Source: Bacteroidota bacterium
GTDB taxonomy: Bacteria > Bacteroidota > Bacteroidia > Flavobacteriales > BACL11
Assembly (NCBI GenBank): GCA_028408365.1
Contig: JAOOLD010000009.1
Location: 1-63,422, forward strand
Length of the DNA: 63,422 nucleotides
Reading direction: 5' to 3'
Shown: one piece after another, positions 28,079 through 45,800 of the stretch
Layout: each line of letters opens with the position of its first letter
Numbering within the stretch: the stretch's first letter is position 1
Position numbers and translations under genes: made by a program
Notes under the pieces: generated by a model
Told to the model about the DNA's origin: nothing
Databases searched by the model: none
The model's input: the letters and a program-made list of their open reading frames with translations, nothing else

Positions 28079-28459
28079 TTATTCGATAATATTTTTTGAA
28101 ATTAAGCACTTATTTGCTTTTCCAAAGAATTTATATCTATTTCTTGCAACAAAATCATAAAAAATGTCTCTAATGCTTCTTGGGATAATCTTAAAAATAG
28201 ACATCAAATTATAAGGGAAACCTAAACTCTGTGAAATACGGATTACTGCATCAGATTTTATATATGTATTTCCATTTAAATAAAAAATGATTGAATCAAC
28301 ATCTACTAGATTTTTGTTATTGCTCAGTATATCATTCGCTGTTTTTCCAGATAGTCTTGTAAAGTAAATATTATCTTTTTTATCAATGACTGACACAATT
28401 TGAACAAATCGATTACAAAGAAGACAATCCACGTCAAAAATAATTACTGAATCCTTCAT
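28079..28459 (-). CDS. DCC family thiol-disulfide oxidoreductase-like protein
   Basis: A 126-residue protein with the hallmark D-x-D-C-x-x-C (FDVDCLLCN) near the N-terminus, as in DCC/DUF393 proteins. The ATG at 28459 is preferred over the TTG at 28462. It begins 5 bases after the FecA-like receptor gene and is the last gene of the iron operon. DCC proteins are, from memory, often found beside HTTM/gamma-carboxylase-like proteins, as here. Substrate unknown. Confidence 0.8.
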   Translation of the reverse strand: MKDSVIIFDVDCLLCNRFVQIVSVIDKKDNIYFTRLSGKTANDILSNNKNLVDVDSIIFYLNGNTYIKSDAVIRISQSLGFPYNLMSIFKIIPRSIRDIFYDFVARNRYKFFGKANKCLISKNIIE

Positions 28460-28464
28460 CAATA

Positions 28465-30876
28465 CTAAAAATTTAATTCTAAAGTTAAGTAAAAATTCCT
28501 TCTCGGTGAGGGAATAATACCAGGTCCTGGATATCCAGTTGCTCTTCTTGTAAAATATGATTTATTCAGAACATTATTAATACCATATTCAACTCTTATT
28601 ATTTTCCAGTTATATGAGCCTGAAATATCTAAAACTGTATACTCAGGAATTTGTCCAATAACACCACTTAAATTACTTTCTATAGCATTAGTAGCATCAG
28701 TAAACTGGCTAGAAATATATGTCAATTGTGTTCTAAAACTATATTTTTTAAAGCCCAAAATATATCCTGATTTGAAATTTATTTTGGGAACAAATTCAAC
28801 TTCATTTCCCTCAATACCTATTTGATCGGATTCATTGTAATTGGAAGAAATTATTGAAGTATTAAAAAATATATTTGAACTATGTATTTTAAAATTAAAA
28901 ATTGAACTTAAATTTAAGTTGAATAAAGATTCTAAGCCATAAATTGTTGCATCACCAACATTTCCTCGCTCACTTTTTACATTACCATCAGGCATAAGTT
29001 TTTGAATAAATCCAATTCTGTCGTTATAGCTTAATAAAAAAGAACTAACATCAAAATATAACACTTCATGATAATTACCACGTAATCCAAGATCAAATGT
29101 GAATCCATCCTCGTCTTTTATATTTTCATTAACTACATAAGATGGATTAATTATTGAAATATCAGCGAATGTAACTGATCTATAATTTTGAGAAAAGTTT
29201 GAATAAAACTCTATATCTTTTAAAGGCTTATAAGAAAAACCAAGACCAAAAAGCATAAAATTTCTTCTATTTTTGTTTAATTCAAAGTAGGTTGTATCAA
29301 AGATTGGATTACCTGCAGCATCTAAATTTATTTTTTTATAGTAGCCATCACTGGATGTATTTATATACTCAAATCTAAAACCTGGGGTAATTGATAATTT
29401 ATCACTAAAATAAATTATATTCTCACCATAAAAAGCAAAGTTTCTATTTGGATACTGATACTTTGATTGACTTGAATAATAAGGAAATTCACTTTCATAA
29501 AAGTTAAAATCTGCATCTGAAGCATCAGATCCAGGGCCTTGCTTACTTTCACTGTTTGATACATAAACTTTTTTTCCTATTAGAAGCACGTTATTGTAAT
29601 CTCTGAAATTATATCTTTTTAAATATTTTGTTTCTAAACCAAAGTTTTGAAAATTACCTACGATTAAATCTCTTTCTGAAAAAGAGTCAACTTGATCGAC
29701 TCTATTTGTTCTAAAACCAAGTGCTCTTCTTCTAGCACTAAGACCGAAGAAGTTTGTATAAAGTTTAGAGTTATCGTTAAATTGATGCTCAAGTCTTAAA
29801 TTGTATAAAAACCAAAAAACATCAAACCAATTTCTCTCTCTATTACTTTGTAAAGGATTTGAATTGAACATTGCATCATTTAAACCGCCAGGCTGCTGAG
29901 CTAGATATTGCAATATTGTGGACTCAAAAGATACTTTTGATTGTTTAAAGCTATATGAAAAGTAAACATAGTTGTTTATCGACTCAAAATTAGAATTTGG
30001 TCTAAACCCATTTCCTTTCTTATAATTTACTGATGTTAAATATTCAGTTTTATTAATCTTTCCAGAAAATTCACTGTAGTTTGTAAAAATATTATTACTT
30101 GCTAATGTATTTCTAATTATGCTTGAAAATCTTTTTGATTGATTAGGCTTTTTTAGTACGAAATTAATTAAACCTCCAAATTGTGTGCCGTACTGCAAAG
30201 CAGCAGCTCCTCTTACAATTTGAATCTTATCCAATGACTCACTTGGAGGAGTATAATAACTCTCTGGATATCCTAAAACATCGGCACTAATGTCATAACC
30301 ATTTTGTCTAGCGTTAAAATTTGCAGTTCTGCTTGGGTTGAGACCTCTTCCTCCTATATTTAATTGCAACCCAGCATCATCATTCTGATAAATATTTAAG
30401 CCAGCAACTTGACTGAATATTTGTCTTGCGTTGTTAGAAGATAAATTGATGTCTGTTTTTGATAAAGTGATAACCTCAGACTTTTTTCCGGCAAAAACAG
30501 CATCTTTTTCAATATCCTTTAATTTCATTATTTTAAATACTGTTTCACTTTTATCTTTTATATTAAGCTCTTCAAGTTGCACATTTAATCGATCTAACTT
30601 GATGTTCATATTTTTTTTAGCCTTAGTCTGAAAGACATTATAGTTGGACTTAAAAAAGAATAGTTCAGTGCCTATTTCAACATCAATTTTAAATTTTCCA
30701 TCACCTTTTGTTTTATAAATTAAATTTGCATTTTTATCATATATTTCAACTCCAGATATTTTTTTTCCAGAAATAGAACTTTCAATTTGTCCGTTTAAAA
30801 AAGTTGTTTGTGCTTTTAATTGACATACAAGAAAGACAAATACTACAACAAAAAAATCAAATACCTTTAATTTCAT
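28465..30876 (-). CDS. TonB-dependent outer-membrane receptor, FecA-like
   Basis: A 803-residue protein with a signal peptide (ending about residue 22), a CarboxypepD-reg-like domain (about 24-105), a plug domain (IFSQVAGLNIYQND, GRGLNPSRTANFNARQNG, VRGAAALQYGTQFGG) and a 22-strand barrel ending in LTLELNF. The plug sequence resembles iron-citrate (FecA-type) receptors. It imports an iron complex with TonB energy. Its start overlaps the HTTM gene by 20 bases, so it belongs to the iron/heme operon. Confidence 0.88.
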   Translation of the reverse strand: MKLKVFDFFVVVFVFLVCQLKAQTTFLNGQIESSISGKKISGVEIYDKNANLIYKTKGDGKFKIDVEIGTELFFFKSNYNVFQTKAKKNMNIKLDRLNVQLEELNIKDKSETVFKIMKLKDIEKDAVFAGKKSEVITLSKTDINLSSNNARQIFSQVAGLNIYQNDDAGLQLNIGGRGLNPSRTANFNARQNGYDISADVLGYPESYYTPPSESLDKIQIVRGAAALQYGTQFGGLINFVLKKPNQSKRFSSIIRNTLASNNIFTNYSEFSGKINKTEYLTSVNYKKGNGFRPNSNFESINNYVYFSYSFKQSKVSFESTILQYLAQQPGGLNDAMFNSNPLQSNRERNWFDVFWFLYNLRLEHQFNDNSKLYTNFFGLSARRRALGFRTNRVDQVDSFSERDLIVGNFQNFGLETKYLKRYNFRDYNNVLLIGKKVYVSNSESKQGPGSDASDADFNFYESEFPYYSSQSKYQYPNRNFAFYGENIIYFSDKLSITPGFRFEYINTSSDGYYKKINLDAAGNPIFDTTYFELNKNRRNFMLFGLGFSYKPLKDIEFYSNFSQNYRSVTFADISIINPSYVVNENIKDEDGFTFDLGLRGNYHEVLYFDVSSFLLSYNDRIGFIQKLMPDGNVKSERGNVGDATIYGLESLFNLNLSSIFNFKIHSSNIFFNTSIISSNYNESDQIGIEGNEVEFVPKINFKSGYILGFKKYSFRTQLTYISSQFTDATNAIESNLSGVIGQIPEYTVLDISGSYNWKIIRVEYGINNVLNKSYFTRRATGYPGPGIIPSPRRNFYLTLELNF

Positions 30877-32206
30877 CTTTTAATGGTATTATCCAATTTT
30901 TCTTCTTAAAACTCTCTTTCTCCTCTAAAAGATTCACGTTGTTATCTATGAATCTTTGGCTTTCTCTTCCATTTAGTGTGACATAACTATCAACAAATAC
31001 TTTTGGCTCAATGAATCCTCTTTTTTTATAGTAATCACCTAGAAAATGAGCATATTCTAGTATCATATCAGGCTGAAAGCTCATTTGTTTTATTTGAAAG
31101 TCAGTTAAAAAATTAGAGTTTTCAACTAATATTCTCTTGTCTGATTGACTATCTATAACTCTAAATGTGGTATAACCCATTTTTTCAATAAGCATTACTC
31201 TCCATGAAAATCTATAACCTTCCTCATTCCAGAAAAGTTCACCAGAATACATCAGGCTCCTAAATGGGAATAAAATTTGCACAAAAAGTAAAATAGAAAT
31301 TATTAAAACATTAATTTTTTGAAATTTTGAGTTATAGTCTTGGTACCAAATGTCTTTGGTTTTTAAAAATTTAATTGACTCAAATGCTTTAAATATTTTT
31401 TGAAACTGATTAGAACTAAAAAAAATAGTAGCAAAAAGAATCATAATGTATGGAAACATTCCAATCGGAAATAAAATAGCAGTCATTACGTGAAATAAAA
31501 TAACCAATAGAAAGGCAAATATTCTTGTTCTATTAATTATCAAGAAGAAAGGAATAAGTAGGTCATATAACATTCCACCCCAACTAAAAAAATAATGAAC
31601 CCATGATTTTTGGAATAAGTCTCCTAAAATGGGTAAATCATAGTTTGATGTAAGCCATAGTGATAAGGGTGCAGCTTGAAGTAACCAATCGGAATTAATT
31701 TTAGCTAATCCTGCGTAAAAATAAACGATAAAAACAAATAATTTTATAGCGTCAATATTCCATTTTGGAACTGACAAAAAGGCTTTTTTATTTAAATAAT
31801 TATCCAAAGAGTATTTGGCATTAAGGGGAAGGAAAATAAATAAGAAACTAACTACACTGATGAAATAGTAGTGATTTAGATATGTTGTTTTATCAATTAA
31901 CTCAATATATGTGAAAGAGATAAAAAATACGAAAATTGAAAATCTATACTTGTATCCTAAAGCAACAAACAAAGATGAAACTCCACATATTATGAACAGT
32001 AAATAGTTGTAATGACCTAATGATTTCACCCACTCAAAACCATAATATTTAAAATGCATAAATGGTTCTATATAAATGGATTCTATCCAACCGTTATAAT
32101 AAAACCTTATCATACTAAAAAGCATTAAAAGACCGAAACCTATTCTTAAAAAAGCTAAAGGCTCCGGTCTTATTTTCTGATTTAAATAATTCTTGATATT
32201 GTTCAA
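30857..32206 (-). CDS. HTTM / vitamin K-dependent gamma-carboxylase-like membrane protein
   Basis: A 449-residue protein with about eight or nine membrane segments in the first 290 residues, including the HTTM block FYAGLAKINSDWL, followed by a soluble C-terminal domain with FSWRVMLIEKMGYTTFRV and conserved Trp/Arg residues. This matches bacterial homologues of gamma-glutamyl carboxylase, whose reactions are mostly unknown. The start is a TTG that overlaps the stop of the 36-aa gene; the next ATG would remove the first membrane segment. It lies between imelysin and the FecA-like receptor. Confidence 0.82.
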   Translation of the reverse strand: MNNIKNYLNQKIRPEPLAFLRIGFGLLMLFSMIRFYYNGWIESIYIEPFMHFKYYGFEWVKSLGHYNYLLFIICGVSSLFVALGYKYRFSIFVFFISFTYIELIDKTTYLNHYYFISVVSFLFIFLPLNAKYSLDNYLNKKAFLSVPKWNIDAIKLFVFIVYFYAGLAKINSDWLLQAAPLSLWLTSNYDLPILGDLFQKSWVHYFFSWGGMLYDLLIPFFLIINRTRIFAFLLVILFHVMTAILFPIGMFPYIMILFATIFFSSNQFQKIFKAFESIKFLKTKDIWYQDYNSKFQKINVLIISILLFVQILFPFRSLMYSGELFWNEEGYRFSWRVMLIEKMGYTTFRVIDSQSDKRILVENSNFLTDFQIKQMSFQPDMILEYAHFLGDYYKKRGFIEPKVFVDSYVTLNGRESQRFIDNNVNLLEEKESFKKKNWIIPLKDEIKGI

Positions 32207-32313
32207 AATACAGCTGTCTTGTAAATGTAGTCTGTAATTAAAAGTATTAGGACCGTAATAAAACCAACTACGAAAAGAATTAATAACTTCTTCCCATTAT
32301 TATTAGTCTCCAT
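32203..32313 (-). CDS. 36-residue single-helix membrane peptide in the iron operon
   Basis: ATG at 32313 lies within the last codons of the imelysin gene (11-base overlap) and the TGA at 32203-32205 overlaps the TTG start of the HTTM gene. The product is 36 residues: polar start METNNNGKK, a hydrophobic helix (about 10-27) and a short tail DYIYKTAVF. The overlaps at both ends argue that it is a real, translationally coupled gene. Function unknown. Confidence 0.6.
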   Translation of the reverse strand: METNNNGKKLLILFVVGFITVLILLITDYIYKTAVF

Positions 32314-33418
32314 CTGCATCCACGTAATCAACTGCAATAGACAAAACAGATAACATGTCTGTCTTTAATTTCACTACTCCCTCTTGAATTGCATCATATG
32401 TGTATAGAAATTGTAATAAGTTTCCATTTATTTGCTCAACAAAATTATCGTTTAGCTGAAGTAGCATTTGTTCAGAATTATTAAACTTATCATTTATTTG
32501 TTGAGATAAATAAATATTAGATAGATTATTTTTTGAAACAATAAAATCAATGTAGGTTTTCAAAGACTCTCCGCTAGTTCCATCAACAAAAGATTCGCCG
32601 TTATAAAAAGCTTTGACTGCTTTCAAAGCCTCTATTGCTAACTTTTTAGAAATATTTTTCCTGTAGTAAGCCTCGACTTTATCAGTGTAAACTGATGAAA
32701 AAACTCCTCCAGGAATTCCTATTTTATTTGCTCTAAATCCTTTTTCATAATAATAAATAAAGTCATTAGTTAATTTATTTAGGCTAGAAGTGGCTGTGTT
32801 TGCCGTAGAACTTACAAAATCATCTCTTTCAGTTTGCCAATAATTAATTATTTGATCTGTATTGCTAATCATTTGATTAATCAAAGAAGATAAATAGTTA
32901 GTGTATTTGTATCCATCAACAGATTGATATTTAGTAATGACCATATTACTATCACTTTCAATTCCGTATAGCATATAGTCAATTGCAGGAAATCCTTGTG
33001 CAGAAAAGTTATTTGAGTTATTTTCTAAATCAAATGTAGCGCTTTCTACGTTTAGCTCTATCCTAGCTGTATTTGTAGGATATATATTTGTCTTTTGAAA
33101 ATAATACATCTCCTCAGCTTTACCTATGTTGAACATTTCTACATACTGCCAGGATATATAAGCATCAAGCCATTTTTTTCTAAGATCCATTAAATTATTT
33201 TGAGTCAAATCAGATGAAAAAGTTTGAAAAGACTGATTCAAATCAGAAAGCTCATTTGAAAATTGATTAATAGAAGGTATGATTATGTTGTCTGTCAAAT
33301 TGACAAGCAAAGCTCCCCTATCATATCCGTCATTTGTTATTGATGGTTGGTTTGAATCACCACCTCCACAAGATGACAATCCAATAACTATAATTAAGAA
33401 TAAATATATTTTTTTCAT
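32303..33418 (-). CDS. Imelysin family lipoprotein with altered metal motif
   Basis: A 371-residue lipoprotein (lipobox GLSSC, Cys17). It has the imelysin helical-bundle pattern with RKKWLDAYISWQYVEMFNIG (80-99) and GFPAIDYMLYG (142-152). Imelysins are iron-regulated surface or periplasmic proteins linked to iron or heme uptake. The classical GxHxxE motif reads GFPAID here, so the His and Glu are missing and peptidase activity is unlikely. It is probably in one transcript with the 36-aa gene, HTTM, receptor and DCC genes; a long inverted repeat separates it from the DUF4856 gene. Confidence 0.85.
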   Translation of the reverse strand: MKKIYLFLIIVIGLSSCGGGDSNQPSITNDGYDRGALLVNLTDNIIIPSINQFSNELSDLNQSFQTFSSDLTQNNLMDLRKKWLDAYISWQYVEMFNIGKAEEMYYFQKTNIYPTNTARIELNVESATFDLENNSNNFSAQGFPAIDYMLYGIESDSNMVITKYQSVDGYKYTNYLSSLINQMISNTDQIINYWQTERDDFVSSTANTATSSLNKLTNDFIYYYEKGFRANKIGIPGGVFSSVYTDKVEAYYRKNISKKLAIEALKAVKAFYNGESFVDGTSGESLKTYIDFIVSKNNLSNIYLSQQINDKFNNSEQMLLQLNDNFVEQINGNLLQFLYTYDAIQEGVVKLKTDMLSVLSIAVDYVDADGD

Positions 33419-33457
33419 TTTTTAAATAATAAATAACAATTAAGAGTTTTTTAAAAT

Positions 33458-33538
33458 AAATAGAAAATGAGGAGTAAATATATGAGTGATCAGAGGCAAT
33501 GAAAAGATCCTTTAAATACAAACCCCTCTTTTCTATTT
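33458..33538 (-). promoter_or_regulatory. Long inverted repeat between DUF4856 and imelysin genes
   Basis: AAATAGAAAATGAGG (33458-33472) pairs with CCTCTTTTCTATTT (33525-33538) with one bulged base and a loop of about 52 bases. In the minus-strand transcript it would form an AT-rich stem after the DUF4856 stop. It could set differential expression or mRNA ends; it lacks the form of a standard terminator. Confidence 0.4.
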
Positions 33539-33547
33539 TTTATAATT

Positions 33548-34726
33548 TTATAAGCTAGTTCTTGACTTAATGTTATTAGCCATATCAGTTAGTTCCTGGT
33601 CTGTTCTATCCCAAAACCCATTACCAGCTTCTAATGAAGCTAACATATTGTTAACTTCTACATTTGTGAAATATGGTGTTCCACCTTCATCAAAAGTAAA
33701 CTGTAGGCTCATGATAAAACCATAACCCTCAGATAAATCGTGGAAGTAGTCTGCCATATCAGCACTAGCATTCCCACCACTAGCGGCTGCTGATTCTAAG
33801 TAATCGATAGCTTTATATGCTATTATTCTAGAAATTGCTTTTCTTACTACATCAATTTGCTCGTCTGCAACAGATTGAACATCTTGTGTCACTGCAGCTC
33901 TACCAAGTTTAAATGCTTCAAAAAGAGTATTGAATATTCCTACTTCTTGACCATTGTTAACTTTATTAGTATACTTTGCAAGTAACACATCACCAGTCAT
34001 ATAGCTAGATTCAGGAAGAGCTAAATCACTTGCTAATCCAAAAAGATAACCATAGCCTTCATCATATTTATGCTCCTTTTCAGTTGCACCATTATTACTT
34101 GATGCATCTCTAATCACATGATCGTAATTAGCAGAATTTAGATAAACACCAGCAAGATATTTATATAAAATTTGATCAGCACACATACCACCAATTAGAC
34201 CTTTACCGAAGCATTGGTTTAATTCCATTCCTTTAGCATTGACTTTAACAGTTCTCCCACCAGGACCAGTGTGAACACCAGCAACACCAGCAGAAGCATC
34301 AGTTAGAGCAACTACTGCAGGGGCAACAACATCAGCAAACTCAGTTACCATTGCATCAAATTGAGCTTTGACAGTTGCTGAAGCTTGTGATGAAGCAGCT
34401 GTTTTACTTCCAACAATTTTAGTTGTTCCATTAAGAGTAGCATCAGCAAAACCTGCTGATGAACCATTATCACCGTCAAACATCGTCATTATTTCTGATT
34501 TTGTTTTAATCTCATCGTTCATAGCACTCATTAATTCAGCAGCCATTTTAAGTCTAGCTGTTTGACCTGCACAAGCTACAGTTGAAGTTCCCTCATATAA
34601 AAACTCGTAACTATCTGGCATATTTACAACTGGTGTTGGATCATCTCCATCTCCTCCAGTTGAACATGATGAGAAAATCACGACAAGAGAAAGAAATAAG
34701 ATTTGAAATAAATTATTTTTTTTCAT
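33548..34726 (-). CDS. DUF4856 family lipoprotein
   Basis: A 392-residue lipoprotein (lipobox IFSSC, Cys20). YEFLYEGTSTVACAGQTARL after a Pro-rich linker, and the Asp/Glu-rich helices after it, match DUF4856, a Bacteroidota family that I recall beside imelysins. Its composition (Ala, Gly and Ser rich, KYDEGYGYLFGLA) is less AT-biased at the protein level than its neighbours. It probably works with imelysin in metal or heme handling; this is inferred from context only. Confidence 0.75.
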   Translation of the reverse strand: MKKNNLFQILFLSLVVIFSSCSTGGDGDDPTPVVNMPDSYEFLYEGTSTVACAGQTARLKMAAELMSAMNDEIKTKSEIMTMFDGDNGSSAGFADATLNGTTKIVGSKTAASSQASATVKAQFDAMVTEFADVVAPAVVALTDASAGVAGVHTGPGGRTVKVNAKGMELNQCFGKGLIGGMCADQILYKYLAGVYLNSANYDHVIRDASSNNGATEKEHKYDEGYGYLFGLASDLALPESSYMTGDVLLAKYTNKVNNGQEVGIFNTLFEAFKLGRAAVTQDVQSVADEQIDVVRKAISRIIAYKAIDYLESAAASGGNASADMADYFHDLSEGYGFIMSLQFTFDEGGTPYFTNVEVNNMLASLEAGNGFWDRTDQELTDMANNIKSRTSL

Positions 34727-34748
34727 TTTGTTATTTTTAATTAAACAA

Positions 34749-34812
34749 CAAAATTATATATTATTTAGAATAAATCTAAATAAATAGAAACATTTTTTAT
34801 TTATTCTAAATA
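34749..34812 (-). promoter_or_regulatory. Promoter and operator of DUF4856/imelysin transcript
   Basis: -7 box TAATTTTG (34756-34749, minus) ends 22 bases before the ATG. Upstream is a perfect 14-base inverted repeat, TATTTAGAATAAAT (34762-34775) and ATTTATTCTAAATA (34799-34812), centres 37 bases apart. Within it the minus strand carries AATAAATAAA, also present in the AraC/hmuY control region. Confidence 0.5.
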
Positions 34813-34879
34813 GATGTAATAAATTTAAGCATGGCCAGAACAAAATAAGAACTAAATATTAAGTAATAAGAATAATTTA

Positions 34880-35827
34880 TTAAGGAATTAATTCCTCCAA
34901 CTCAAACTTTGGGTATCCTTTCAAGCCTTGACTGTTGTAAAAATCAATGAATCTCATTTTATAGTATTTTCCTTCAAAGTCTCTAATAACAAAATTGATA
35001 TTATCTTTTACTGAGTAAAGATTAGTTTCAAAATTAAATTCTTTCCAATTATATCCAATTATATCCCTTTGGGATAAAAATTGATAGTCAGATAAACTCG
35101 AGTAATTGATTTGATTAAAATCGTTAATGGTATCTACAGCTACTTGAATTGTTTTATCATTAATTAATACACCAGTCACTAGATACTCTATCTGTGGATT
35201 TGTAAATAGCCTTGTGTATTGGGTAAATAATAAATCCCAGCTATTAATTTCTGGTGAGATATTTACAACCTTTAATGAGCTAAAAGAAAATGGAGTAAAT
35301 AACTTATTTTGGTCCAGAGTGATATCTAAAATTGTATCATTGAATAACTCTATTTGTGAAGTCTTAACTCTAAAAAATGAGGTGTTAAGTTCTAAAAATT
35401 GAACTTTATATATTCCCATCGCACTTCCGTTTATATTTAGTCCTATATCAAGAATATATACTTTTGAGGTATCAATTGATTGAAAGGCTAAACTATCATG
35501 ATTTCCACTTGGAGCATCCCAACTCCATTGTGCATTTGCAATATCAACACTGTCATTAAAATTATAATCAGTTACCCATACTTTGGAAAAGTTAGCTGAA
35601 TTTAAAATTATTTTAAAATTAGAATCTAGCAAAATGCCTATATCCCACTCAGACTTAATATTCATAGATGAAATACTTGATTGACTCAAATCGTAAAAAA
35701 CTTGATTTTGATAATTAGGCTCTAATGGTATTGTTTCAATTAACAACTCTGAAGTAGGTGGATTTATTGGAATCTCGCCTGGATCGCAAGCACTAAAAAT
35801 TAGAATTATATAAAGAATACGTTTCAT
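34880..35827 (-). CDS. HmuY family heme-binding lipoprotein
   Basis: A 315-residue lipoprotein (lipobox FSAC, Cys14). HmuY-type blocks: SEWDIGILLDS, WDLLFTQYT, IGYNWKEF and KMRFIDFYNSQGLKGYPKFE. HmuY proteins capture heme and hand it to HmuR; the axial ligands (two His in P. gingivalis HmuY) cannot be assigned here. The start overlaps the end of the receptor gene by 4 bases. The following 152 bases hold the DUF4856 promoter, so this may be the last gene of the first transcript. Confidence 0.82.
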   Translation of the reverse strand: MKRILYIILIFSACDPGEIPINPPTSELLIETIPLEPNYQNQVFYDLSQSSISSMNIKSEWDIGILLDSNFKIILNSANFSKVWVTDYNFNDSVDIANAQWSWDAPSGNHDSLAFQSIDTSKVYILDIGLNINGSAMGIYKVQFLELNTSFFRVKTSQIELFNDTILDITLDQNKLFTPFSFSSLKVVNISPEINSWDLLFTQYTRLFTNPQIEYLVTGVLINDKTIQVAVDTINDFNQINYSSLSDYQFLSQRDIIGYNWKEFNFETNLYSVKDNINFVIRDFEGKYYKMRFIDFYNSQGLKGYPKFELEELIP

Positions 35828-38052
35828 AAAAATCTATAGTTAAGAGAAACAAAAAAAGATCTGCCATATGAAATGGACATACTTTCACTTTGTTGATGAA
35901 ATCCTTGTGAATTATTAGACATTCCAACGTCAGTAATATTGAAAAGGTTTTTGAAACCTAAAATAATTTTGAGTTTATTTTCATAATATTTTTTTGAGAA
36001 ACTCAAATCAAGCAACTGATAAGAATCTCTTTTGTTTTCAACAATTTCATTATCGGAATTTAGAGTTAAAAATTTTGACTTTCCTCTAATGGAAAATGAT
36101 AAAACTATTTCAGAATCAATCATTTCAGAGAAAAATGTAACAAAAGAACTGTTATCAACAGAGTAATAATAAGTATCATCTGCATTTACACTACTATTTA
36201 TTCCACTAAAGTTCAATTTGTTATCAATTGTTAATAAATCTTTTTTAAAGTTTAATTTAAAGGATCCTCCTCTAGTTTTATATCTACCAACATTCACATA
36301 TGTATATAAATTACCATTTTCAGCTAGAGTAATTAAGTTTTTTATATCATTATAATAAGTAAAAATTGAAACTGTGGTATTTGCTGAATTGTTATTTATA
36401 TTTTTACTCATTTCATAGCTAATATGATCAGATATTTCTGATTCTAAGTTTTGATTTCCTATAATATTATGATTGATATCAACAAACTCGAAATATAGCT
36501 CCTTTAATGTTGGTGACCTGAAGCCTTTTGCTAATGAAAGTCTTAATTTAACGTCATTAATTTCTGAAAGCAGATTAATTGATGGTATCAGAGGTACATC
36601 ATATTTGGAATTATATGAGTATCTGATTCCTGGCTTAATTCTTAAGTAATCTTTGACATTAATATCTAAATTAGAGAAAAAAGCGAAATCACTTAGGTTC
36701 TTTTCTCCACCGGTAATTCGTCTACCACTTGCAACTTCCATGTTTAAATTATATCCTAGTTCATATTTAAAGTTTTTATTTTTTTTAGATGCATAAGTTG
36801 CTCTATTAAAAAAATTGCTGAAACCAATAGTATCTTGCATAGACTGGTCATTGACTATTCTTTGATTAAGAGTTGTTAAGTCAACATAAAAGGTATTTTT
36901 TCTCCTTTTATAAGTGTCATATGAAACTAAAAAATTTGATTTATTATCGTCATTTAAAATATCAAAATTTAAAGAAGTAGAATTTCTCCAAGTTTTATAG
37001 AAATCATCAAATGCGTTAATATAATATGGTTGCCTTGGATATCCTTTGTTTGTTATCTCCTCAAAAAAGAAACTATTTTTTATTGTCATATTCACTGAAC
37101 CTAACTTTACAAAATCATTAAAGGTTATAAAATATTGCTCTTTTGGATTCCATTGTTGGTATCTTGAAGAATCGGCAATATTTTTTCTTGGGATAAAAGT
37201 AAATTTTTCAGATTTAGACCATCCGTCGAAATAGTTTCTTCCAACTAAAATTGAAAAATTGTTTATTCCTATCTTTCTCATATAATTGGAAGTGATATTA
37301 TATTTTCCTACTGACTCATAGTAGCTAGACAGCTTTAAGCTCTGATTTTGAGTTAAAGTTTTACTACTAATTAAATTAATTGTTCCTGCTAACGCATCAG
37401 TTCCATAATTAACTGATAAAGGCCCTTCAACTATTTCAATTCTTTCGATATTAGATAAATTAATGTGTCCAAGATCAATGTTACCACCTAATCTACCTAT
37501 GACAGGAACATTGTCTATAAGAATTTTTATATTCTGTCCCGAAAGACCTTGTATAGACAAACTACTGCCTAAAATATTATCATTATTAAGACTCAAAGAG
37601 GCATCCATCTTAACAACATCACTTAAATTAACAGCTGCTAATCTTTCTATTTTATGTTTATTTATCAAGTTAATACTATGAAATGATTGTGAAATATCAC
37701 TTTCAAAAATTTGACCAGTAACAACTGCTTGTTGCAGTTCATAATTTTTTTCTCTTAAATAAATGAAATTAGTATCTAATAATTTAACATTTTTTTCAAA
37801 CGCGAAATAACCAATATGCTTAGCTATGCATAAATATTCTTTATCCATTTGTAAAGAAGTTACATCTAAAAATCCATTTGATTCAGTAAAAGATGAAAGA
37901 ACTAGATTCTCATTTTCGTAAATATAAATATCGCAAGATTCAATTTTTTTTCCATTGATATCAGAAACAATTATAATCTGACTAGAGACTTTTTCAAAAG
38001 AAAAAAATAGAATTATGAAAAATAATTTTCTAAACAATTTTTTACTTAACAA
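35824..38052 (-). CDS. TonB-dependent receptor, HmuR-like
   Basis: A 742-residue receptor with signal peptide (ending VSSQ, about 25), a short regulatory domain, a plug domain (IERLAAVNLSDVVKMDASL, LSIQGLSGQNIKILIDNVPV, VEGPLSVNYGTDALAGTINLI) and a barrel ending in NYRFL. The plug closely follows heme/vitamin B12-type TonB receptors. It is flanked on both sides by HmuY-family genes, each overlapping, so a heme uptake (HmuYR) role is inferred. The start codon is a TTG, with no ATG available. Confidence 0.85.
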   Translation of the reverse strand: MLSKKLFRKLFFIILFFSFEKVSSQIIIVSDINGKKIESCDIYIYENENLVLSSFTESNGFLDVTSLQMDKEYLCIAKHIGYFAFEKNVKLLDTNFIYLREKNYELQQAVVTGQIFESDISQSFHSINLINKHKIERLAAVNLSDVVKMDASLSLNNDNILGSSLSIQGLSGQNIKILIDNVPVIGRLGGNIDLGHINLSNIERIEIVEGPLSVNYGTDALAGTINLISSKTLTQNQSLKLSSYYESVGKYNITSNYMRKIGINNFSILVGRNYFDGWSKSEKFTFIPRKNIADSSRYQQWNPKEQYFITFNDFVKLGSVNMTIKNSFFFEEITNKGYPRQPYYINAFDDFYKTWRNSTSLNFDILNDDNKSNFLVSYDTYKRRKNTFYVDLTTLNQRIVNDQSMQDTIGFSNFFNRATYASKKNKNFKYELGYNLNMEVASGRRITGGEKNLSDFAFFSNLDINVKDYLRIKPGIRYSYNSKYDVPLIPSINLLSEINDVKLRLSLAKGFRSPTLKELYFEFVDINHNIIGNQNLESEISDHISYEMSKNINNNSANTTVSIFTYYNDIKNLITLAENGNLYTYVNVGRYKTRGGSFKLNFKKDLLTIDNKLNFSGINSSVNADDTYYYSVDNSSFVTFFSEMIDSEIVLSFSIRGKSKFLTLNSDNEIVENKRDSYQLLDLSFSKKYYENKLKIILGFKNLFNITDVGMSNNSQGFHQQSESMSISYGRSFFVSLNYRFL

Positions 38053-39274
38053 TAAGCTTCTTGTGATGTATTGATTTATTTTCTAATAAAGAAATTGTAT
38101 AGACTCCAGACTTATAAGTATGAACTGGTAAATTAATAACTGAAAAATTATCCTTAATCTTTTGAGAAAAAATTAATTTACCTGAAATATCGTAAATATT
38201 GATTTGAGAATTTAAATCAAGTGTATTTGTCACAATATTTACGTTATCTGAGGCTGGGTTTGGATACACATTTATAGTTGATTTATTTTTATCATTTGTA
38301 GAAACAGAAGAATTAATTTGTGTAACATTGAAAGAAATCTTGCCTGTCGATGAGCCTTCAAACTCAGTGAAGTAAATTCTAAAAACATTGTTATCAAAAT
38401 CTTTTATAAAATAGCATCTGGAGTTATCAATGATATAAGAAAATGAGCCCATATCGAAGGTTTTCCAATCATAACCTATCTCATTTATTTCATACTCAAA
38501 ATTGTGATTCGCAAAATTAGTGTATGATGAAGGACTACCAATTTGTGACGCCTTCGCAACTTCGATGCCTTCATTGCAAAGTACACCAGTAACAGAATAT
38601 GGTTGATTCATAACTGGGGTGATATATTTTGTAAATGTAAAATGCCATTGGTCATCAGCTGGCTCTCTATCCAAAGTTTGATCTAAATCTATGTCATAAT
38701 ATACAAACTTTTTGTTTGAATAGTTGTTAGTATTAACTTGCTGGGTAATCAAGTTTGTTCCATCCAAATTTGCGTATTTAAAAAAATATACTCCTGCATC
38801 AAGCTTCTCAATCCAGAGCTTTTTCCAAATTCCATTAGTTGTTTTAATTATGTGTAAGGAATCTCCAACAACATTGTGAGTCAGCATATTATAAATACCC
38901 CACCCATAGTCAGGAAAAGCTGAAGAGTAGACATCAAATGCTCCTACTGACCAACCTGTGTCACTATTAAATTGAGGACTTGGTAATGTATTGATTGATA
39001 AATTATTAATTGAAGACCAACCACTAGTGTCAGTTGATGAATAAGTGTAAAGTTCCACTCCCTTACCATCATTGGTTCTAATAGAAGAATTAAAAGTACC
39101 TGTGCTGAACGCTAAATCCCATGAGTTGTTATCAACATTGGCAGTTTCACCGTTAACTAAATGATAAAAACTTTGATTAGAATAAGACTGTTGAAGATAT
39201 ACAGAATTATTTTGCGCAGAAGTGGTATTGATCAAAAAAAGGGTTACAATTATTATTTTTAGTCTGAAAATCAT
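38042..39274 (-). CDS. HmuY-domain protein with T9SS sorting domain
   Basis: A 410-residue secreted protein. Signal peptide ends TTSAQ. Two HmuY-like segments (NSWDLAFSTGTF and DDQWHFTFTKYI, IGYDWKTFDMGSF, FRIYFTEFEG) are followed by a type A T9SS sorting domain (INVYPNPASDNVNI to the terminal KKLIVK). The ATG at 39274 is used because the -7 box TATCTTTG (39293-39300) lies between it and the upstream TTG at 39307. It overlaps the receptor gene by 11 bases and is the first gene of the heme operon. A T9SS-exported HmuY beside a lipoprotein HmuY is uncommon. Confidence 0.8.
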   Translation of the reverse strand: MIFRLKIIIVTLFLINTTSAQNNSVYLQQSYSNQSFYHLVNGETANVDNNSWDLAFSTGTFNSSIRTNDGKGVELYTYSSTDTSGWSSINNLSINTLPSPQFNSDTGWSVGAFDVYSSAFPDYGWGIYNMLTHNVVGDSLHIIKTTNGIWKKLWIEKLDAGVYFFKYANLDGTNLITQQVNTNNYSNKKFVYYDIDLDQTLDREPADDQWHFTFTKYITPVMNQPYSVTGVLCNEGIEVAKASQIGSPSSYTNFANHNFEYEINEIGYDWKTFDMGSFSYIIDNSRCYFIKDFDNNVFRIYFTEFEGSSTGKISFNVTQINSSVSTNDKNKSTINVYPNPASDNVNIVTNTLDLNSQINIYDISGKLIFSQKIKDNFSVINLPVHTYKSGVYTISLLENKSIHHKKLIVK

Positions 39275-39292
39275 TTTTTTCAAAATTTTTTG

Positions 39293-39366
39293 CAAAGATA
39301 AAACCAATAAAATCAGAAAAAATAATAAATAAAGTTCATTTTTAATAAATAAAGTGCCTAGATTTG
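39293..39366. promoter_or_regulatory. Divergent promoters with AraC-type direct repeat
   Basis: Minus-strand -7 box TATCTTTG (39293-39300) serves the heme operon; plus-strand box TAGATTTG (39359-39366) serves the AraC gene. Between them TAATAAATAAAGT occurs twice in the same orientation (39323-39335 and 39343-39355) with a 20-base period, the geometry expected for an AraC-family dimer. The right copy ends 4 bases before the AraC -7 box. Confidence 0.6.
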
Positions 39367-39406: not shown

Positions 39407-40273
39407 ATGAAAAAAAGTGAAAATTTTGATAAAAGTATCATAGAAAACGAAATGATATTACTTAAATATCAAAGTCTAACTGAAGACTCTATTTTTTTAA
39501 ATGAAGAGGGACCTACAGGTTATATCCAGTTTCATTTTGTAAATGATGGTATTTCAAAATTTAGGTTTAACAACAACTCTTATCAATTAGAAATCAAAAA
39601 AGGTAATTACTTAACTTTATATAACCCCGAAAGAGAACTTCCAATAGATATAGAAATAATTAATAAAGGAAGTGTAATTAGCATTGTGATTTCAATTTCT
39701 AGATTTCACAACCTGCTATCTTCTGAATCCTCCAACATAAAATTTTTAGATAATGATAATATCAACAAAAAACATTATAAGGAAGAAAAGATGTCAATAG
39801 GAATGCAAACTGTACTTAATCAGATTTTTAACTATAATAAAAAATCAACTACAAAAAAACTTTTCTTAAAATCGAAGTTGTATGAGCTAATTAGTCAAAT
39901 TTTTGATTCAAATAATGAGGTTTCAATAGATCAATGTCCTGTTTTTATAAATAGCGAATACTTCAAAAAAATAAGACTAGCAAAAGAAATATTAATTTCT
40001 AATTTTTCCTCTCCTCCAACTCTAGAAAAGTTATCTAATGAAGTTGAACTTAGTCTAAAAAAATTAAAAATTGGCTTTAAAGAAGTCTACGGCAAACCTG
40101 CATATCAGTATTTAATTGATTACAAATTAGAAATTGCTAAAAATATGATTACAAATGGTAAGTTGAATATAAATGAGATAAGTGATGAGTTGGGATATAA
40201 CAACGCAAGTCACTTCATTTCTTCGTTTAAGAAAAAATTCGGAATAACACCAAAATCATTTTTAAGTAGTTAG
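39407..40273 (+). CDS. AraC family regulator, PchR-like
   Basis: A 288-residue protein. The N-terminal part resembles siderophore-sensing PchR regulators; the C-terminal 100 residues form the two-helix-turn-helix AraC domain (LEKLSNEVELSLKKLKIGFK and NEISDELGYNNASHFISSFK, ending FGITPKSFL). It is transcribed away from the heme operon and shares its control region. Such regulators activate iron or siderophore uptake genes when bound to their ligand. It is the likely controller of the adjacent locus and of itself. Confidence 0.88.
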   Translation: MKKSENFDKSIIENEMILLKYQSLTEDSIFLNEEGPTGYIQFHFVNDGISKFRFNNNSYQLEIKKGNYLTLYNPERELPIDIEIINKGSVISIVISISRFHNLLSSESSNIKFLDNDNINKKHYKEEKMSIGMQTVLNQIFNYNKKSTTKKLFLKSKLYELISQIFDSNNEVSIDQCPVFINSEYFKKIRLAKEILISNFSSPPTLEKLSNEVELSLKKLKIGFKEVYGKPAYQYLIDYKLEIAKNMITNGKLNINEISDELGYNNASHFISSFKKKFGITPKSFLSS

Positions 40274-40572: not shown

Positions 40573-40647
40573 GTAATTATTTAGACAAAAAATTATGTAA
40601 CTAATTGATAATTATTAATTTAGAAGAAGTCTAAATAAAAATAAAAG

Positions 40648-42810
40648 TTATTGCAAAGCTAATTTTTTGTTGATAGTTCCTTGCTTTGTATTAATTTCTA
40701 AGAAGTATACAGCCTTTGTGTAATTCTCTAAGCTAATTTCTTTTGTATATGTTCCATCAAACTGATTGAGCTCCTCTTTGTATATCTCCTCTCCTACAAT
40801 ATTTCTTATCCTTAGTGTGATATCTTGCATATTAGCTGTTTTAAAGCTGATATTAAACACATCTCTTGAAGGGTTAGGATAGATATCTAAATCATTTATT
40901 ATCGTACTCTGTTCTAATCTAACTGATCCTGGCATAGTGAAGTATATAAATGATGTCCATGATGGTGCCTTATATGCTCCTCCATTGAGATCACACCATG
41001 TCCTTGACTTAGCTCTATATGATGTGCCTGGTACTAAGCCGTTCTTGTTCTTTGTATATGTCCCATATGGTACTCCTACTCCACCAATATTAAAGAATGA
41101 TGAACCAACAGTATCTACTCTACCTTGTAGTCTTGCAAAGCTGTATGCTCCATTACTATTATCCCAAGTAAAGGTTGCTTTAGTACTATTTGGTGTAGTA
41201 ACTGCTAGATTACCAACATTTGGACAATCAGCAAGTGTTGTGAAGTTAGGTCCACTCACCCATGGTGTATTACCTGTTGAACAGTACCATACTCTCATCT
41301 GCCATTCATAAGTCGTATTGGATGATAAGCCTAGTAATTGTTTGTCTGTTCTTGTTGTGCTATTACAAATACCTGTAACTGGGTCATAGCCTGTGGGTGA
41401 GCCCATGTTCTTCTGATTCCAGGCATTTGTTCCTACTTTTCTATACTTTATCCTTAGCTGGTCTACCCTGCAAGATGAACTATTCATATCATCAAAGGTA
41501 AGTGTTGCTCGATCATGTATCACATTACTAACACCAAGGCCAGTGATTGATGGTGAACTACAACTTACAGTATAAGTACAGCTTCCGTCATCAACTGTTG
41601 CAAGTGGATCATAATTAATAGCTAAAGAATCTGTGCAGCCGTTAAAAATACCTATTTGAATTGTATCAAATACATTGCAGCCTGCATCATCTTGTATATT
41701 AACGATATAATTACCTGTACAGAGATTGAATACATAGCTTTGAGTGGAACCATTTTGCCATGTAATTGTAAATGGAGGATTAGAGGTAACTACTGAAGTA
41801 ATAGCTATCCATCCATCGCAAGAACTTAAACTACTTGGGTCTGAAAAACCATATGAATATGAAAGATCACAATAAACACATGAACTATCATCTACAGTAG
41901 CTAGAGGGTCATAATTAACCGCATAATTATCTGTGCATCCTGAGATCAGAAAGTTTAAACTAATTCCTACAGGCCTATGGTCAGAAATAATATTATCATA
42001 TGTACTCCAACCTCCAACTAAATAATCATCTATACGAATAGTAGATACATTACTGTTAGTGAAGTAGTTAAAAAGCTCATTTGTTACTAATATATGATCA
42101 ATATCAGAAGGCCAATTTGGATATGACCAATTAGTAATTGATGAGTTGGATATATATAAATCAGCAAAATAGTAGTTTGTTGAGTCTAAAAATATATTTC
42201 TAAAAACATTATTAGCAAAAGGATCTTGCAACTCATCATTTAAATCTCCTAAAAAAATGACTCTAGAACTTTGTAGATTATTATCTATATAATTTTTAAT
42301 CATATTCATCGCTCTGTACCTTCTATTTTCTTCATCAGAAATATCATTAGTATCTAGTATACCATCGCCACAGCATTTTAAATGTGAGTTGATGATTTCA
42401 ATATTTTCTCCATTGTAGTTCAAAGAAATAACAATCGGAGCTCTTCCTGCAAAATTATAGGTCTGAGAAGAAAAAATAGTATATATGTTGTTAACAGCAA
42501 GATTTGATTTGTAAATAAAAGCCATTTTTCTACTACTACCAGAGCTACAATAGCCGCTATAGTTAGGTAACAGTGACAATAAATTATTGAAATCAGAGAC
42601 ATTCATTATTTCCTGCAAAGCAATAACATCAGCATCGAATGACTCAATAATTACAGCTACTGAATCTATTGTTTGTTGACCATTTTTTGGAAAATTTTCA
42701 ATGTTCCATGAAATAACATCCAAAGAATTTGATCCTCCAAAGGTTACATTAGAAAGATTTTGAGCATCAACTAAATTAAAAGAAATTATTAGAACTAAAA
42801 TTAATCTCAA
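40648..42810 (-). CDS. Secreted endonuclease/exonuclease/phosphatase with T9SS sorting domain
   Basis: A 720-residue exported protein. After a signal peptide, an EEP domain (about 25-285) shows DVISWNIENFP, VIALQEI, NSHLKCCGD, FLGDLNDE, DIDHILV and SDHRPVGISL, covering the catalytic Asn, Glu, Asp and His positions of metal-dependent nucleases. Two short GCTD..NYDPLATVDD.SC modules follow, then fibronectin-like domains and a type A sorting domain (DIYPNPSRD). It probably acts on extracellular DNA. The start is a TTG with no upstream ATG in frame. The preceding large gene shares the ATVDDGSC module. Confidence 0.82.
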   Translation of the reverse strand: MRLILVLIISFNLVDAQNLSNVTFGGSNSLDVISWNIENFPKNGQQTIDSVAVIIESFDADVIALQEIMNVSDFNNLLSLLPNYSGYCSSGSSRKMAFIYKSNLAVNNIYTIFSSQTYNFAGRAPIVISLNYNGENIEIINSHLKCCGDGILDTNDISDEENRRYRAMNMIKNYIDNNLQSSRVIFLGDLNDELQDPFANNVFRNIFLDSTNYYFADLYISNSSITNWSYPNWPSDIDHILVTNELFNYFTNSNVSTIRIDDYLVGGWSTYDNIISDHRPVGISLNFLISGCTDNYAVNYDPLATVDDSSCVYCDLSYSYGFSDPSSLSSCDGWIAITSVVTSNPPFTITWQNGSTQSYVFNLCTGNYIVNIQDDAGCNVFDTIQIGIFNGCTDSLAINYDPLATVDDGSCTYTVSCSSPSITGLGVSNVIHDRATLTFDDMNSSSCRVDQLRIKYRKVGTNAWNQKNMGSPTGYDPVTGICNSTTRTDKQLLGLSSNTTYEWQMRVWYCSTGNTPWVSGPNFTTLADCPNVGNLAVTTPNSTKATFTWDNSNGAYSFARLQGRVDTVGSSFFNIGGVGVPYGTYTKNKNGLVPGTSYRAKSRTWCDLNGGAYKAPSWTSFIYFTMPGSVRLEQSTIINDLDIYPNPSRDVFNISFKTANMQDITLRIRNIVGEEIYKEELNQFDGTYTKEISLENYTKAVYFLEINTKQGTINKKLALQ

Positions 42811-42841
42811 TATTTTAAAAGATATCTTTTCATAGTATTTA

Positions 42842-45800
42842 TTATTTCACTAGAGATATTTTTCTACTGTATACTTTACCACTTTTAGATCTGATATTTA
42901 TAAAATATGTTCCTTTTTTTAATGCTCCCAAACTGAGTTTAGTGGAGTTAGTATTCTGATCGAATGATTTTATAATCATTCTCTCTCCTAAAACATTAAA
43001 TATGTCAACCTTATCTATATTCTCAAGTAAAATATTAATTTCATCAAATGTTGGATTTGGAAATATTTCTAAATCTCTAGTTTCCAAAGTATTAATATTA
43101 CTTACACAAGAGTCTACAATAATCTCAATTTGACCTGAAGAAACACATAAGTTTGAATCAACAGCAGTTAATGAATAAGTAGTCGTTTCATTTGGAACAT
43201 CAGTATATGTGGGTAGTAAACTAACAAAGTTTGCAACCTTGTACCAGTAATAAGATAAGAATCCAGGTGCTGTAAGAGTAATTGTATCACCAAGACAAAT
43301 AACATTTGTATTTAATCCTGTAGCAAATATGTTAACAGGAGTACTAGCAAGCACTATTACTTCAGTACTGACAAGGCTATCGCAGTAGCCTATTTGATAA
43401 ACAGTATCAATATATGTACCTGAGCTATAATATGTGCTATTCATAACTTGAACACTATCGCCAGAACAAATTACGAATGTTTGATATCCAACACTTGGTG
43501 CTATAAACTCAATATTACTAAAAACAATACTATCACATAAATTTGATGCAGTCAATGTATCAAATCTTGTTGCATTAGAGGTGTAAGTTTGTCCAGAAAT
43601 ACTAATTGAATCTCCCGCGCACAAAGCGTAGTTTACCAGCGACGAGAGAGGCTTAACTTCAATATCGTAGTAGAAATAATAATATTGATTGCCAACATTG
43701 GAAGATTGAATAGTCACAGATCCAACTGAGTAAGGATATGACCAAGAATTACCGTTTCCTGCATTACTTCTGTACAAGCCCGAATTTCCTCCATCAATAC
43801 CCAGTTCATAATCAGTACCTGATGGTACATAAAAATCAAAAACTAGTCTTTGGACTCCTGGATATACTGTATGAGTTATTGATTCTAAAACATTACCAGT
43901 ACTTCCTCTTAACTCAAATGTGACAGTGTTAGTATCTTGTGAATAAACATTTGCTGATTTAATTATACTCGGTAATGATGCATCTAAAACTAAAGCTCCG
44001 CTATAATTGCTAAATGCACCAGGAGCAATTGCTGTATCCAAAATACCACCATTATAAGTATTATAGCTCGCAGTTTGAATAGATAAGTTAGTTGTAACAA
44101 GGCTATCGCATCCATTAACATTTAATAATGTATCAATGTATGTTCCAGCTTGATAATATTGATTAGAGTGTAAATTCAAAGTATCACCAAGGCAAATTAT
44201 TTGGTTATTAGTACTACTAGAGCTTGAAACTGTCAATACATTTAGATTTGTTGTGATAATACTATCACAGCCATAACTTGTAAACAAAGTATCTATGTAT
44301 GTACCTGATGAATCGTAGCTGTTTCCATTAATTACATAAACTTCGCCATCGCAGATAATTTGGTTGTTTGTATATGTAACATTGGGATAAAAATTAACTT
44401 GAGAGTAAACTAAGCTATCACAACCTACTGATGAGATGAGTGTATCAATATACAGTCCTGAAGTTGTATATACATTACCCAGTAAATTTAAAGTATCTCC
44501 ATCACACAGATCATAAGTGCTTGGATTTGCTGACGGTCTCATTTCTATATCATAATAAAAATAATAATATTGATTACCGGCATTGCTAGATGTTATTGAA
44601 GCAAATGCACCAAAATCATATGGATAATTTACTCCTTGATTGTTCCTCCAAAGTCCTGAACCTGGAGTTGACACGCCAAGTTGAAGGTCATTAGCGGGCA
44701 TGACATCAAAATTTAATATAACTCTCTGAGGACCTGGTACCAATAAATGCGTAGTGTCTTGAAGAACATTTCCATTATTGTCTCTTAGTTCAAATGTAAT
44801 GGAGTTTGTGTCTTGAGAATAAACTAAACTTGATAAAATTTCAGTTTGTGAATAACAACTGAAAATTAAATATTGGCTTTGACTGTTATAATAACCACCT
44901 CCTCCAACAGTATTGTTTGAGATTCCATTAAAAATTGAATTGTATTGATCATAAACAACGACTTCAGTATAAACAATACTATCACAACCCAAAGTATTAA
45001 ACAAAGTATCTGTATAATTTCCAGTTTGATTATATGTAGAAGTACCAACAGTAACACTATCTCCTGAACATATTGTATAAGTGAAATAATTTTGAGTTGG
45101 AATTACATCTAAGCTAGTTTGGACAATACTGTCACAGCCATTAACATTTATTAAAGTATCTGAGTAATTACCACTATTTAAATAAAAAGAAGGACCTACA
45201 AATGCAGTATCACCTTCACAAATAGATAAGCTATTAACTGTAAATGAGGCAGAACTATTTTGTACAAAAAGGTCAGTCAAAATTATACTATCACAGCCAT
45301 TAACAGTAGTTAGCGTATCAAAATACACTCCAGTAGAGTCATATATATTAGTTCCAACTATTACTGATTGACCGCTACATAATGTATCAGAAAAAACAAT
45401 TGAAAATACTGGATTGACTGTTAAATTTGTTGTAACGATACTATCACAAGCAATGGACGACAATAAAGTATCTATGTATGTACCCGTGGAATCATAATTA
45501 TTTCCTCCAATAGAATAAGTTTCACCTGAACAGATATTAATATTGCTAACAAAGTTTTGAGATACAGCAATATCATAGAAGAAATAATAAAAATTAAATG
45601 GTGATCCAGAATTAGAAGATTTGATTGATAAAAGATTAGAAAAATCGTATGGATAATTGACTCCCTGATTGTTTCTATACATTCCGCTGTGTCCACCTGG
45701 CACACCTAACTCAAAATCGTTTCCTACAGGTATATCAAAATTAAGATTAACTCTATTTGCCCCTTGAACCAATGGAACAGTACTTGTTTGTAAAACATTA

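What the first reader, a model, noticed from the sequence alone, without database searches (positions are those of the whole stretch)
28079..39274. Heme/iron operon that includes HTTM, DCC and a micro-peptide: candidate undescribed system
Genes overlap through T9SS-HmuY, receptor and HmuY, then DUF4856, and again through imelysin, a 36-aa peptide, HTTM protein, FecA-like receptor and DCC protein. Known heme uptake explains HmuY, the receptors and imelysin but not a gamma-carboxylase-like membrane protein with a thiol oxidoreductase. One possibility is a membrane modification or redox step acting on an uptake component; another is reduction or release of iron at the inner membrane.
Basis: partly seen in the sequence, partly recalled or inferred. 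Interest (0 to 1): 0.7.

Follow-up and report, generated by a model that had tools for sequence, protein, structure and literature searches.

The report
Iron-uptake operon with vitamin-K carboxylase homologue
A bacterial iron-uptake operon, found across the Bacteroidota, includes a close structural relative of the human vitamin K-dependent carboxylase with its catalytic residues intact, and in some lineages that gene has been replaced by an unrelated oxygen-using membrane enzyme, which suggests an undescribed chemical modification step in iron acquisition.

Summary
The genes are real, but the stretch is two units. T9SS-HmuY-like/TBDR/HmuY (34880-39307) is an ordinary heme-type cluster and is not conserved next to the rest. 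The core is DUF4856-imelysin-'HTTM'-FecA-like receptor (28465-34726), preceded by a Fur box. The 'HTTM' protein is a homologue of vitamin K-dependent gamma-carboxylase (VKGC): its model matches human GGCX at TM 0.86, and N159, H160, K218 and W223 are invariant in 118 of 118 homologues. The four-gene order holds in 134 of 138 VKGC loci and continues outside the class. DCC (10 of 156) and the micro-peptide (one genus) are not core. The same genes in a Riemerella Fur regulon are published without a function. New here: lineages that lost VKGC carry an FA_hydroxylase-family di-iron enzyme (12 of 18 VKGC-less loci, 0 of 138 others; 16 of 26 against 2 of 65 genomes). All operon imelysins but one end in DGD-COOH, a tail mostly absent from other imelysins. 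I infer that a membrane, O2-dependent C-H-modifying enzyme acts on a system component; the imelysin tail or a membrane lipid are the candidates. Activity and substrate are untested. Substrate evidence is weak: no Glu in imelysin or DUF4856 tracks VKGC, and most of these genomes lack VKOR.

The parts
34763..34781 (-). Fur-box-like palindrome ATTTAGATTTATTCTAAAT, 37 bp upstream of the DUF4856 start; marks the core operon's promoter region
   Evidence: 1 mismatch to the R. anatipestifer Fur box; at most 3 mismatches upstream of DUF4856 in 117/151 loci against 1/151 shuffled
33548..34726 (-). DUF4856 lipoprotein (core gene 1)
   Evidence: PF16148 E 4e-77; AF2 pLDDT 90.9, no PDB fold match
32303..33418 (-). 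Imelysin-family lipoprotein (core gene 2), GFPAIDYML in place of GxHxxE, ends ...DADGD
   Evidence: PF09375 E 3e-24; DGD C-terminus in 153/154 operon imelysins
32203..32313 (-). 36-aa one-TM ORF, genus-specific, not a core part
30857..32206 (-). VKGC homologue: HTTM transmembrane domain plus VKGC lumenal domain (core gene 3)
   Evidence: PF05090, PF22777; human GGCX phmmer E 2.5e-37; AF2 model TM 0.80-0.86 to most GGCX cryo-EM chains; K169=K218, N111=N159, H112=H160 invariant in 118 homologues
28465..30876 (-). FecA/siderophore-type TonB-dependent receptor (core gene 4)
   Evidence: PF00593, PF07715; FecA and TonB-siderophore models, below cut-off; present in 134/138 full VKGC loci plus 4 without detected DUF4856
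28079..28462 (-). DCC thiol-disulfide oxidoreductase, lineage-specific accessory
   Evidence: PF04134; at the operon end in 10/156 loci
34880..35827 (-). HmuY lipoprotein, separate neighbouring unit
   Evidence: PF14064; not detected in flanks of the 80 named loci
35824..38052 (-). TonB-dependent receptor of the HmuY unit
   Evidence: PF07715; distant hits to B12 and heme receptor models
38042..39307 (-). T9SS-exported HmuY-like protein of the HmuY unit
   Evidence: PF18962; BLASTP to HmuY P0003 E 2e-10

Best explanation
The core (DUF4856, imelysin, VKGC homologue, FecA-like TBDR) is a Fur-repressed ferric-chelate acquisition system of Bacteroidota. SHOWN by computation: conserved gene order, Fur box, GGCX fold, invariant catalytic base and carboxylate and quinone pockets, and replacement of VKGC by a di-iron FA_hydroxylase-family enzyme in lineages that lost it. 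INFERRED: the VKGC homologue is a working inner-membrane enzyme that oxidises menaquinol with O2 at Lys169 to make a strong base, and uses it to modify a C-H bond (carboxylation, as GGCX does) on a component the system needs; FA_hydroxylase supplies an equivalent C-H functionalisation (hydroxylation) elsewhere. LEAST CERTAIN: the target. The best protein candidate is the C-terminal D/N/S-x-DGD-COOH tail of the operon imelysin, turned into a metal-chelating acidic residue; an amino-acid-containing membrane lipid is the alternative.
For: Gene order DUF4856-imelysin-VKGC-TBDR in 134 of 138 VKGC loci and imelysin-VKGC-TBDR in 15 of 15 loci from other classes of the phylum. Fur box; published iron and Fur regulation in R. 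anatipestifer (PMC5609570). GGCX homology. In 118 of 118 homologues the equivalents of N159, H160, K218, W223, F286, H287 and F299 are unchanged, the residues that PMC12589487 assigns to the base, Glu pocket and quinone pocket. VKGC-less operons carry an FA_hydroxylase gene with all His boxes in 12 of 18 loci and never within 10 kb in 138 VKGC loci; genome-wide 16 of 26 against 2 of 65, and 0 of 304 genomes without DUF4856; 6 phylogenetically independent pairs all or nearly all opposite, p 0.031; one locus keeps a 55-aa N-terminal VKGC remnant between imelysin and receptor. DGD C-terminus in 153 of 154 operon imelysins and 15 of 15 outside the class, one match in the whole own genome.
Against: No enzymatic data. 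No Glu in imelysin or DUF4856 is clearly more conserved with VKGC than without it. The human propeptide-binding second lobe and arch are missing, N158, M401 and R436 are changed. VKOR is absent from the own genome and present in only 35 of 396 class genomes, few of them with the operon, so epoxide recycling is unexplained. FA_hydroxylase-family active sites usually face the cytoplasm (general knowledge), which sits badly with a periplasmic protein tail. The DGD tail could be a docking or metal-binding feature that is never modified. The own genome is 86% complete.
Confidence: 0.5

Rival explanations
1. VKGC and the FA_hydroxylase modify a membrane lipid or isoprenoid, for example an amino-acid lipid, and so tune the outer membrane or a lipid chelator for iron uptake; no protein is modified.
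For: The replacing enzyme's nearest NCBIfam model is ornithine-lipid hydroxylase OlsE (E 1e-12 to 1e-16, far below its equivalog cut-off), a family that acts on lipids. It fits both membrane enzymes without a topology problem, and no Glu in imelysin or DUF4856 tracks VKGC.
Against: The carboxylate-binding pocket N159/H160 of GGCX is invariant, and the genes sit with two lipoproteins, one with a system-specific tail. OlsE similarity is remote.
Confidence: 0.25
2. The enzyme is a menaquinol oxidase or ferric reductase: it passes electrons from menaquinol to O2 or Fe(III) at the inner membrane to release iron, with no substrate carboxylation.
For: The quinone pocket and base are conserved and the setting is iron uptake.
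Against: No redox metal-binding motif was noted in the alignment; GGCX chemistry is not electron transfer to metal; a hydroxylase would not replace a reductase.
Confidence: 0.1
3. The VKGC homologue is catalytically silent or a chaperone-like membrane partner of the receptor, kept for structure.
For: It lacks half of the GGCX substrate-binding domain, and a Leptospira homologue is reported, from memory, to have altered activity.
Against: Complete conservation of catalytic residues over 118 sequences at about 40-60% identity, and replacement by another enzyme that keeps all its metal ligands.
Confidence: 0.1
4. The whole 28079-39274 stretch is one heme operon in which HmuY, DCC and the micro-peptide are functional partners of HTTM.
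For: Overlapping genes and the same strand.
Against: Gap with its own Fur box before DUF4856; HmuY absent near the core in 80 named loci; DCC in 10 of 156; micro-peptide in one genus.
Confidence: 0.05

Closest known systems
[quoted passage not shown]
   Same: Fold (TM 0.80-0.86 to most chains), HTTM plus lumenal domain, catalytic lysine, Glu pocket N159/H160, quinone pocket
   Different: 449 aa against 758; second propeptide-binding lobe and arch missing; N158, M401 and N290 replaced; bacterial inner membrane, iron operon; mostly no VKOR in the genome; activity unknown
R. anatipestifer Fur-regulated cluster RAYM_09779-09794 (PMC5609570)
   Same: TBDR, 'vitamin K-dependent gamma-carboxylase', imelysin and a hypothetical gene, induced by iron limitation and listed as Fur-regulated
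   Different: Listed in a table without functional discussion of the carboxylase; no mention of the replacement enzyme or the imelysin tail; I did not fetch its sequence
Imelysin-like protein systems (EfeUOB; P. aeruginosa PA4370-4372; PMC3143127)
   Same: Imelysin-family lipoprotein, Fur-controlled iron uptake
   Different: No EfeB/DUF1111 peroxidase or EfeU in this operon; GxHxxE motif replaced by GFPxxD; conserved DGD C-terminus
HmuR-HmuY / HfpR-HfpY heme uptake (PMC9331221)
   Same: The neighbouring unit 34880-39307 has a TBDR and HmuY-family proteins
   Different: A separate unit, not part of the conserved core
FA_hydroxylase superfamily (PF04116), nearest named model OlsE
   Same: The replacing enzyme keeps all invariant His boxes
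   Different: Remote from OlsE (46-58 bits against cut-off 475); tied to the DUF4856-imelysin system

Membership tests
VKGC (GGCX) family | HTTM domain plus VKGC lumenal domain | tested here: met
   Both Pfam models far above cut-off; TM 0.80-0.86 to most GGCX chains
VKGC (GGCX) family | Catalytic base K218 | tested here: met
   K169; K in 118/118 iron-clade and 22/22 other-clade homologues
VKGC (GGCX) family | Glu-binding pocket N159, H160, Y395, R436, N158 | tested here: inconclusive
   N159 and H160 invariant, Y395 Y or F, but N158 is L and R436 mostly Q
VKGC (GGCX) family | Propeptide-binding domain and arch for substrate docking | tested here: not met
   Alignment ends at about human residue 506; the protein is 449 aa
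VKGC (GGCX) family | Vitamin K-dependent carboxylation and epoxidation activity | not testable with these tools
   Needs biochemistry
VKGC (GGCX) family | VKOR partner for quinone recycling | tested here: not met
   PF07884 absent in own genome (86% complete) and rare in class
Imelysin/M75 | Imelysin domain | tested here: met
   PF09375 E 3e-24
Imelysin/M75 | GxHxxE motif | tested here: not met
   GFPAIDYML, with GFPALDYLL-like variants in most operon imelysins where the motif was recognised
EfeUOB-like imelysin system | EfeB-type peroxidase in the operon | tested here: not met
   No such gene among the operon proteins
HmuRY heme uptake system | HmuY next to the receptor of the core operon | tested here: not met
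   HmuY is in the separate upstream unit; none detected near the core in 80 named loci
HTTM-DCC pair as a unit | Conserved DCC neighbour | tested here: not met
   10/156 operon loci; two non-operon VKGCs also have a DCC neighbour
Fur regulon | Fur box upstream | tested here: met
   binding not tested here

The most novel reading that the evidence does not exclude
Bacteroidota use menaquinone-dependent carboxylation of an iron-acquisition lipoprotein, possibly at the C-terminal Asp residues of the imelysin tail, to build a metal-chelating site, and some lineages have swapped this for hydroxylation of the same target by a di-iron enzyme. This would be a bacterial counterpart of vertebrate Gla modification, with iron rather than calcium as the reason.
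Probability: 0.25. Interest if true: 0.93.

Novelty: new variant of a known kind. Interest (0 to 1): 0.72.

Why it matters
What bacterial homologues of the vitamin K-dependent carboxylase do is, to my knowledge, an open question. Here a large, deeply conserved clade keeps the human catalytic residues and always sits with an imelysin and a ferric-type receptor, usually under a Fur box, so the question becomes testable in cultured flavobacteria. The swap with an unrelated oxygenase gives an independent handle on the substrate: whatever both enzymes act on should differ by a carboxyl or a hydroxyl between lineages. It could also give functions to DUF4856 and to the imelysin tail.

Tried and rejected
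Glu substrate in imelysin or DUF4856: the well conserved Glu columns (imelysin E225, E249; DUF4856 E168, E223, E333) are about equally conserved with and without VKGC; in the receptor only weaker columns such as E103 (0.79 against 0.29) differ. DUF4856 as an imelysin-like fold: no PDB match or PDB sequence match. VKOR as partner: absent or rare. DCC as core partner: lineage-specific. Micro-peptide as core subunit: one genus. Other VKGC clade for hints about function: housekeeping neighbours such as RibF, no shared substrate gene. Cyanobacterial irpB as a VKGC relative: a lead from memory; PF05090 did not ring in the Synechococcus elongatus control genome, dropped. Literature search for imelysin with HTTM: no paper held; DUF4856: none. 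Other Flavobacteriota iron papers read for the terms: no mention of this system.
Full report
Observation. They form two units. The upstream unit (39307-34880) overlaps throughout and encodes a T9SS-exported HmuY-like protein, a TonB-dependent receptor and HmuY. After a 153-bp gap with a Fur-box-like palindrome at 34763-34781 come DUF4856, imelysin, a 36-aa ORF, the HTTM protein, a FecA-like receptor and DCC.

What the HTTM protein is. It matches both the HTTM domain and the VKGC lumenal domain of Pfam, human VKGC chains of the PDB at E 2.5e-37, and its AlphaFold2 model (pLDDT 92.9) matches the GGCX cryo-EM chains at TM 0.70-0.86, mostly 0.80 or more. The GGCX residues assigned by PMC12589487 to the catalytic base (K218), part of the Glu pocket (N159, H160) and the quinone pocket (W223, F286, F299), plus H287, are identical in 118 of 118 operon homologues; N158, M401, N290 and R436 are changed. 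It lacks the second propeptide-binding lobe and the arch. It is the only HTTM gene found in its genome, which is 86% complete.

Conservation. Eighty named loci and 60 class-wide loci separate two VKGC clades: one always next to imelysin and receptor, one never. With later loci, 138 loci carry the operon VKGC, 134 of them in the order DUF4856-imelysin-VKGC-receptor; DCC follows in 10. Those sampled with DCC fall in one marine flavobacterial group on the tree, which also holds one locus without it. Fifteen loci from other classes of the phylum repeat the imelysin-VKGC-receptor order, 13 with a detected DUF4856. HmuY was not detected near the core in the 80 named loci, and the micro-peptide is confined to the window's genus.

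Iron. The R. anatipestifer Fur paper (PMC5609570) reports its TBDR, 'vitamin K-dependent gamma-carboxylase' and imelysin genes as induced by iron limitation and lists them as Fur-regulated, and gives a Fur consensus. A site within 3 mismatches of it lies upstream of DUF4856 in 117 of 151 loci against 1 of 151 base-shuffled controls. So the operon type and its iron response are already on record; its function is not.

Replacement. Eighteen loci have DUF4856 without VKGC. Of these, 14 keep imelysin and receptor, and 12 have a gene of the FA_hydroxylase family: upstream (6), downstream (3) or divergent (3), and never within 10 kb in the 138 VKGC loci. All His boxes are invariant. Across 396 class genomes this subfamily (E at most 1e-60) occurs in 18, all with DUF4856: 16 of 26 whose DUF4856 is not linked to VKGC and 2 of 65 whose is, Fisher p 2.4e-9, not corrected for kinship. 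Some of the 26 are contig-split or distant DUF4856 cases, so the contrast is if anything diluted. Two of the VKGC-less operons without a nearby hydroxylase (G109, G222) have it elsewhere in the genome. The tree shows repeated independent changes; with kinship accounted for there are 6 independent pairs, opposite in 4 to 6 of them, median p 0.031, a modest significance. One locus retains the first 55 aa of VKGC between imelysin and receptor, a scar of loss.

Substrate. No Glu in imelysin or DUF4856 is clearly more conserved with VKGC than without. The operon imelysin's C-terminus is the striking feature: DGD at the very end in 137 of 138 VKGC and 16 of 16 VKGC-less loci and 15 of 15 outside the class. 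All 144 ORFs of 150 aa or more that end in DxDGD in the sampled DNA are imelysins, and the window genome has a single match. Full-length imelysins outside the operon mostly lack it; two paralogues adjacent to Winogradskyella operons have it. The sample of outside imelysins is small.

Mechanism. From GGCX chemistry (PMC12589487) and conserved residues I infer menaquinol- and O2-driven base formation at Lys169 and modification of a C-H bond on a system component. That the alternative enzyme is a di-iron hydroxylase-family protein fits the idea that C-H functionalisation of one target is the shared job. The target may be the imelysin tail or a lipid; rarity of VKOR and hydroxylase topology are unresolved objections. 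None of this is shown by experiment.

Verdict. A GGCX homologue with an intact active site as a core part of a conserved iron operon, with an unrelated oxygenase as its apparent substitute, was not found described in the literature available here; the held library lacks most subscription journals.

Noticed in passing
window 32303-32320: Imelysin ends DADGD-COOH; a DGD C-terminus is near-universal in imelysins of this operon.
   Followed up: yes
L213:7647-7814 (-): 55-aa N-terminal VKGC remnant between imelysin and receptor, a deletion scar.
   Followed up: yes
L159, L167, L168, L169, L178, L182: A second VKGC clade, also with the K218 equivalent invariant (22/22), sits directly behind a RibF-like gene in several genomes, with no imelysin nearby.
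   Followed up: partly
L018:1040-1438 and L019:2867-3265: DCC genes lie divergently next to VKGCs outside the iron operon in two families, so a DCC-VKGC link may exist beyond this operon.
   Followed up: no
L014/L022, L015/L021, G117:C18:51210-52532: VKGC reading frames broken by frameshift or stop in otherwise intact operons; sequencing errors or early decay.
   Followed up: no
window 39407-40273 (+): AraC-family regulator divergent from the HmuY unit, which has no Fur box of its own in front.
   Followed up: no
window 40618-40636: Second Fur-like palindrome (2 mismatches) just behind the 40648-42810 gene, not in front of any gene of the finding.
   Followed up: no
window 40648-47425 (-): Two large T9SS-tail proteins: an endonuclease/exonuclease/phosphatase-family protein and a C-type-lectin-domain protein.
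   Followed up: no
L061:13769-14845 and L077:14028-15110: In Winogradskyella a second imelysin with a DGD tail but S-AA-E motif lies convergent behind the operon.
   Followed up: partly
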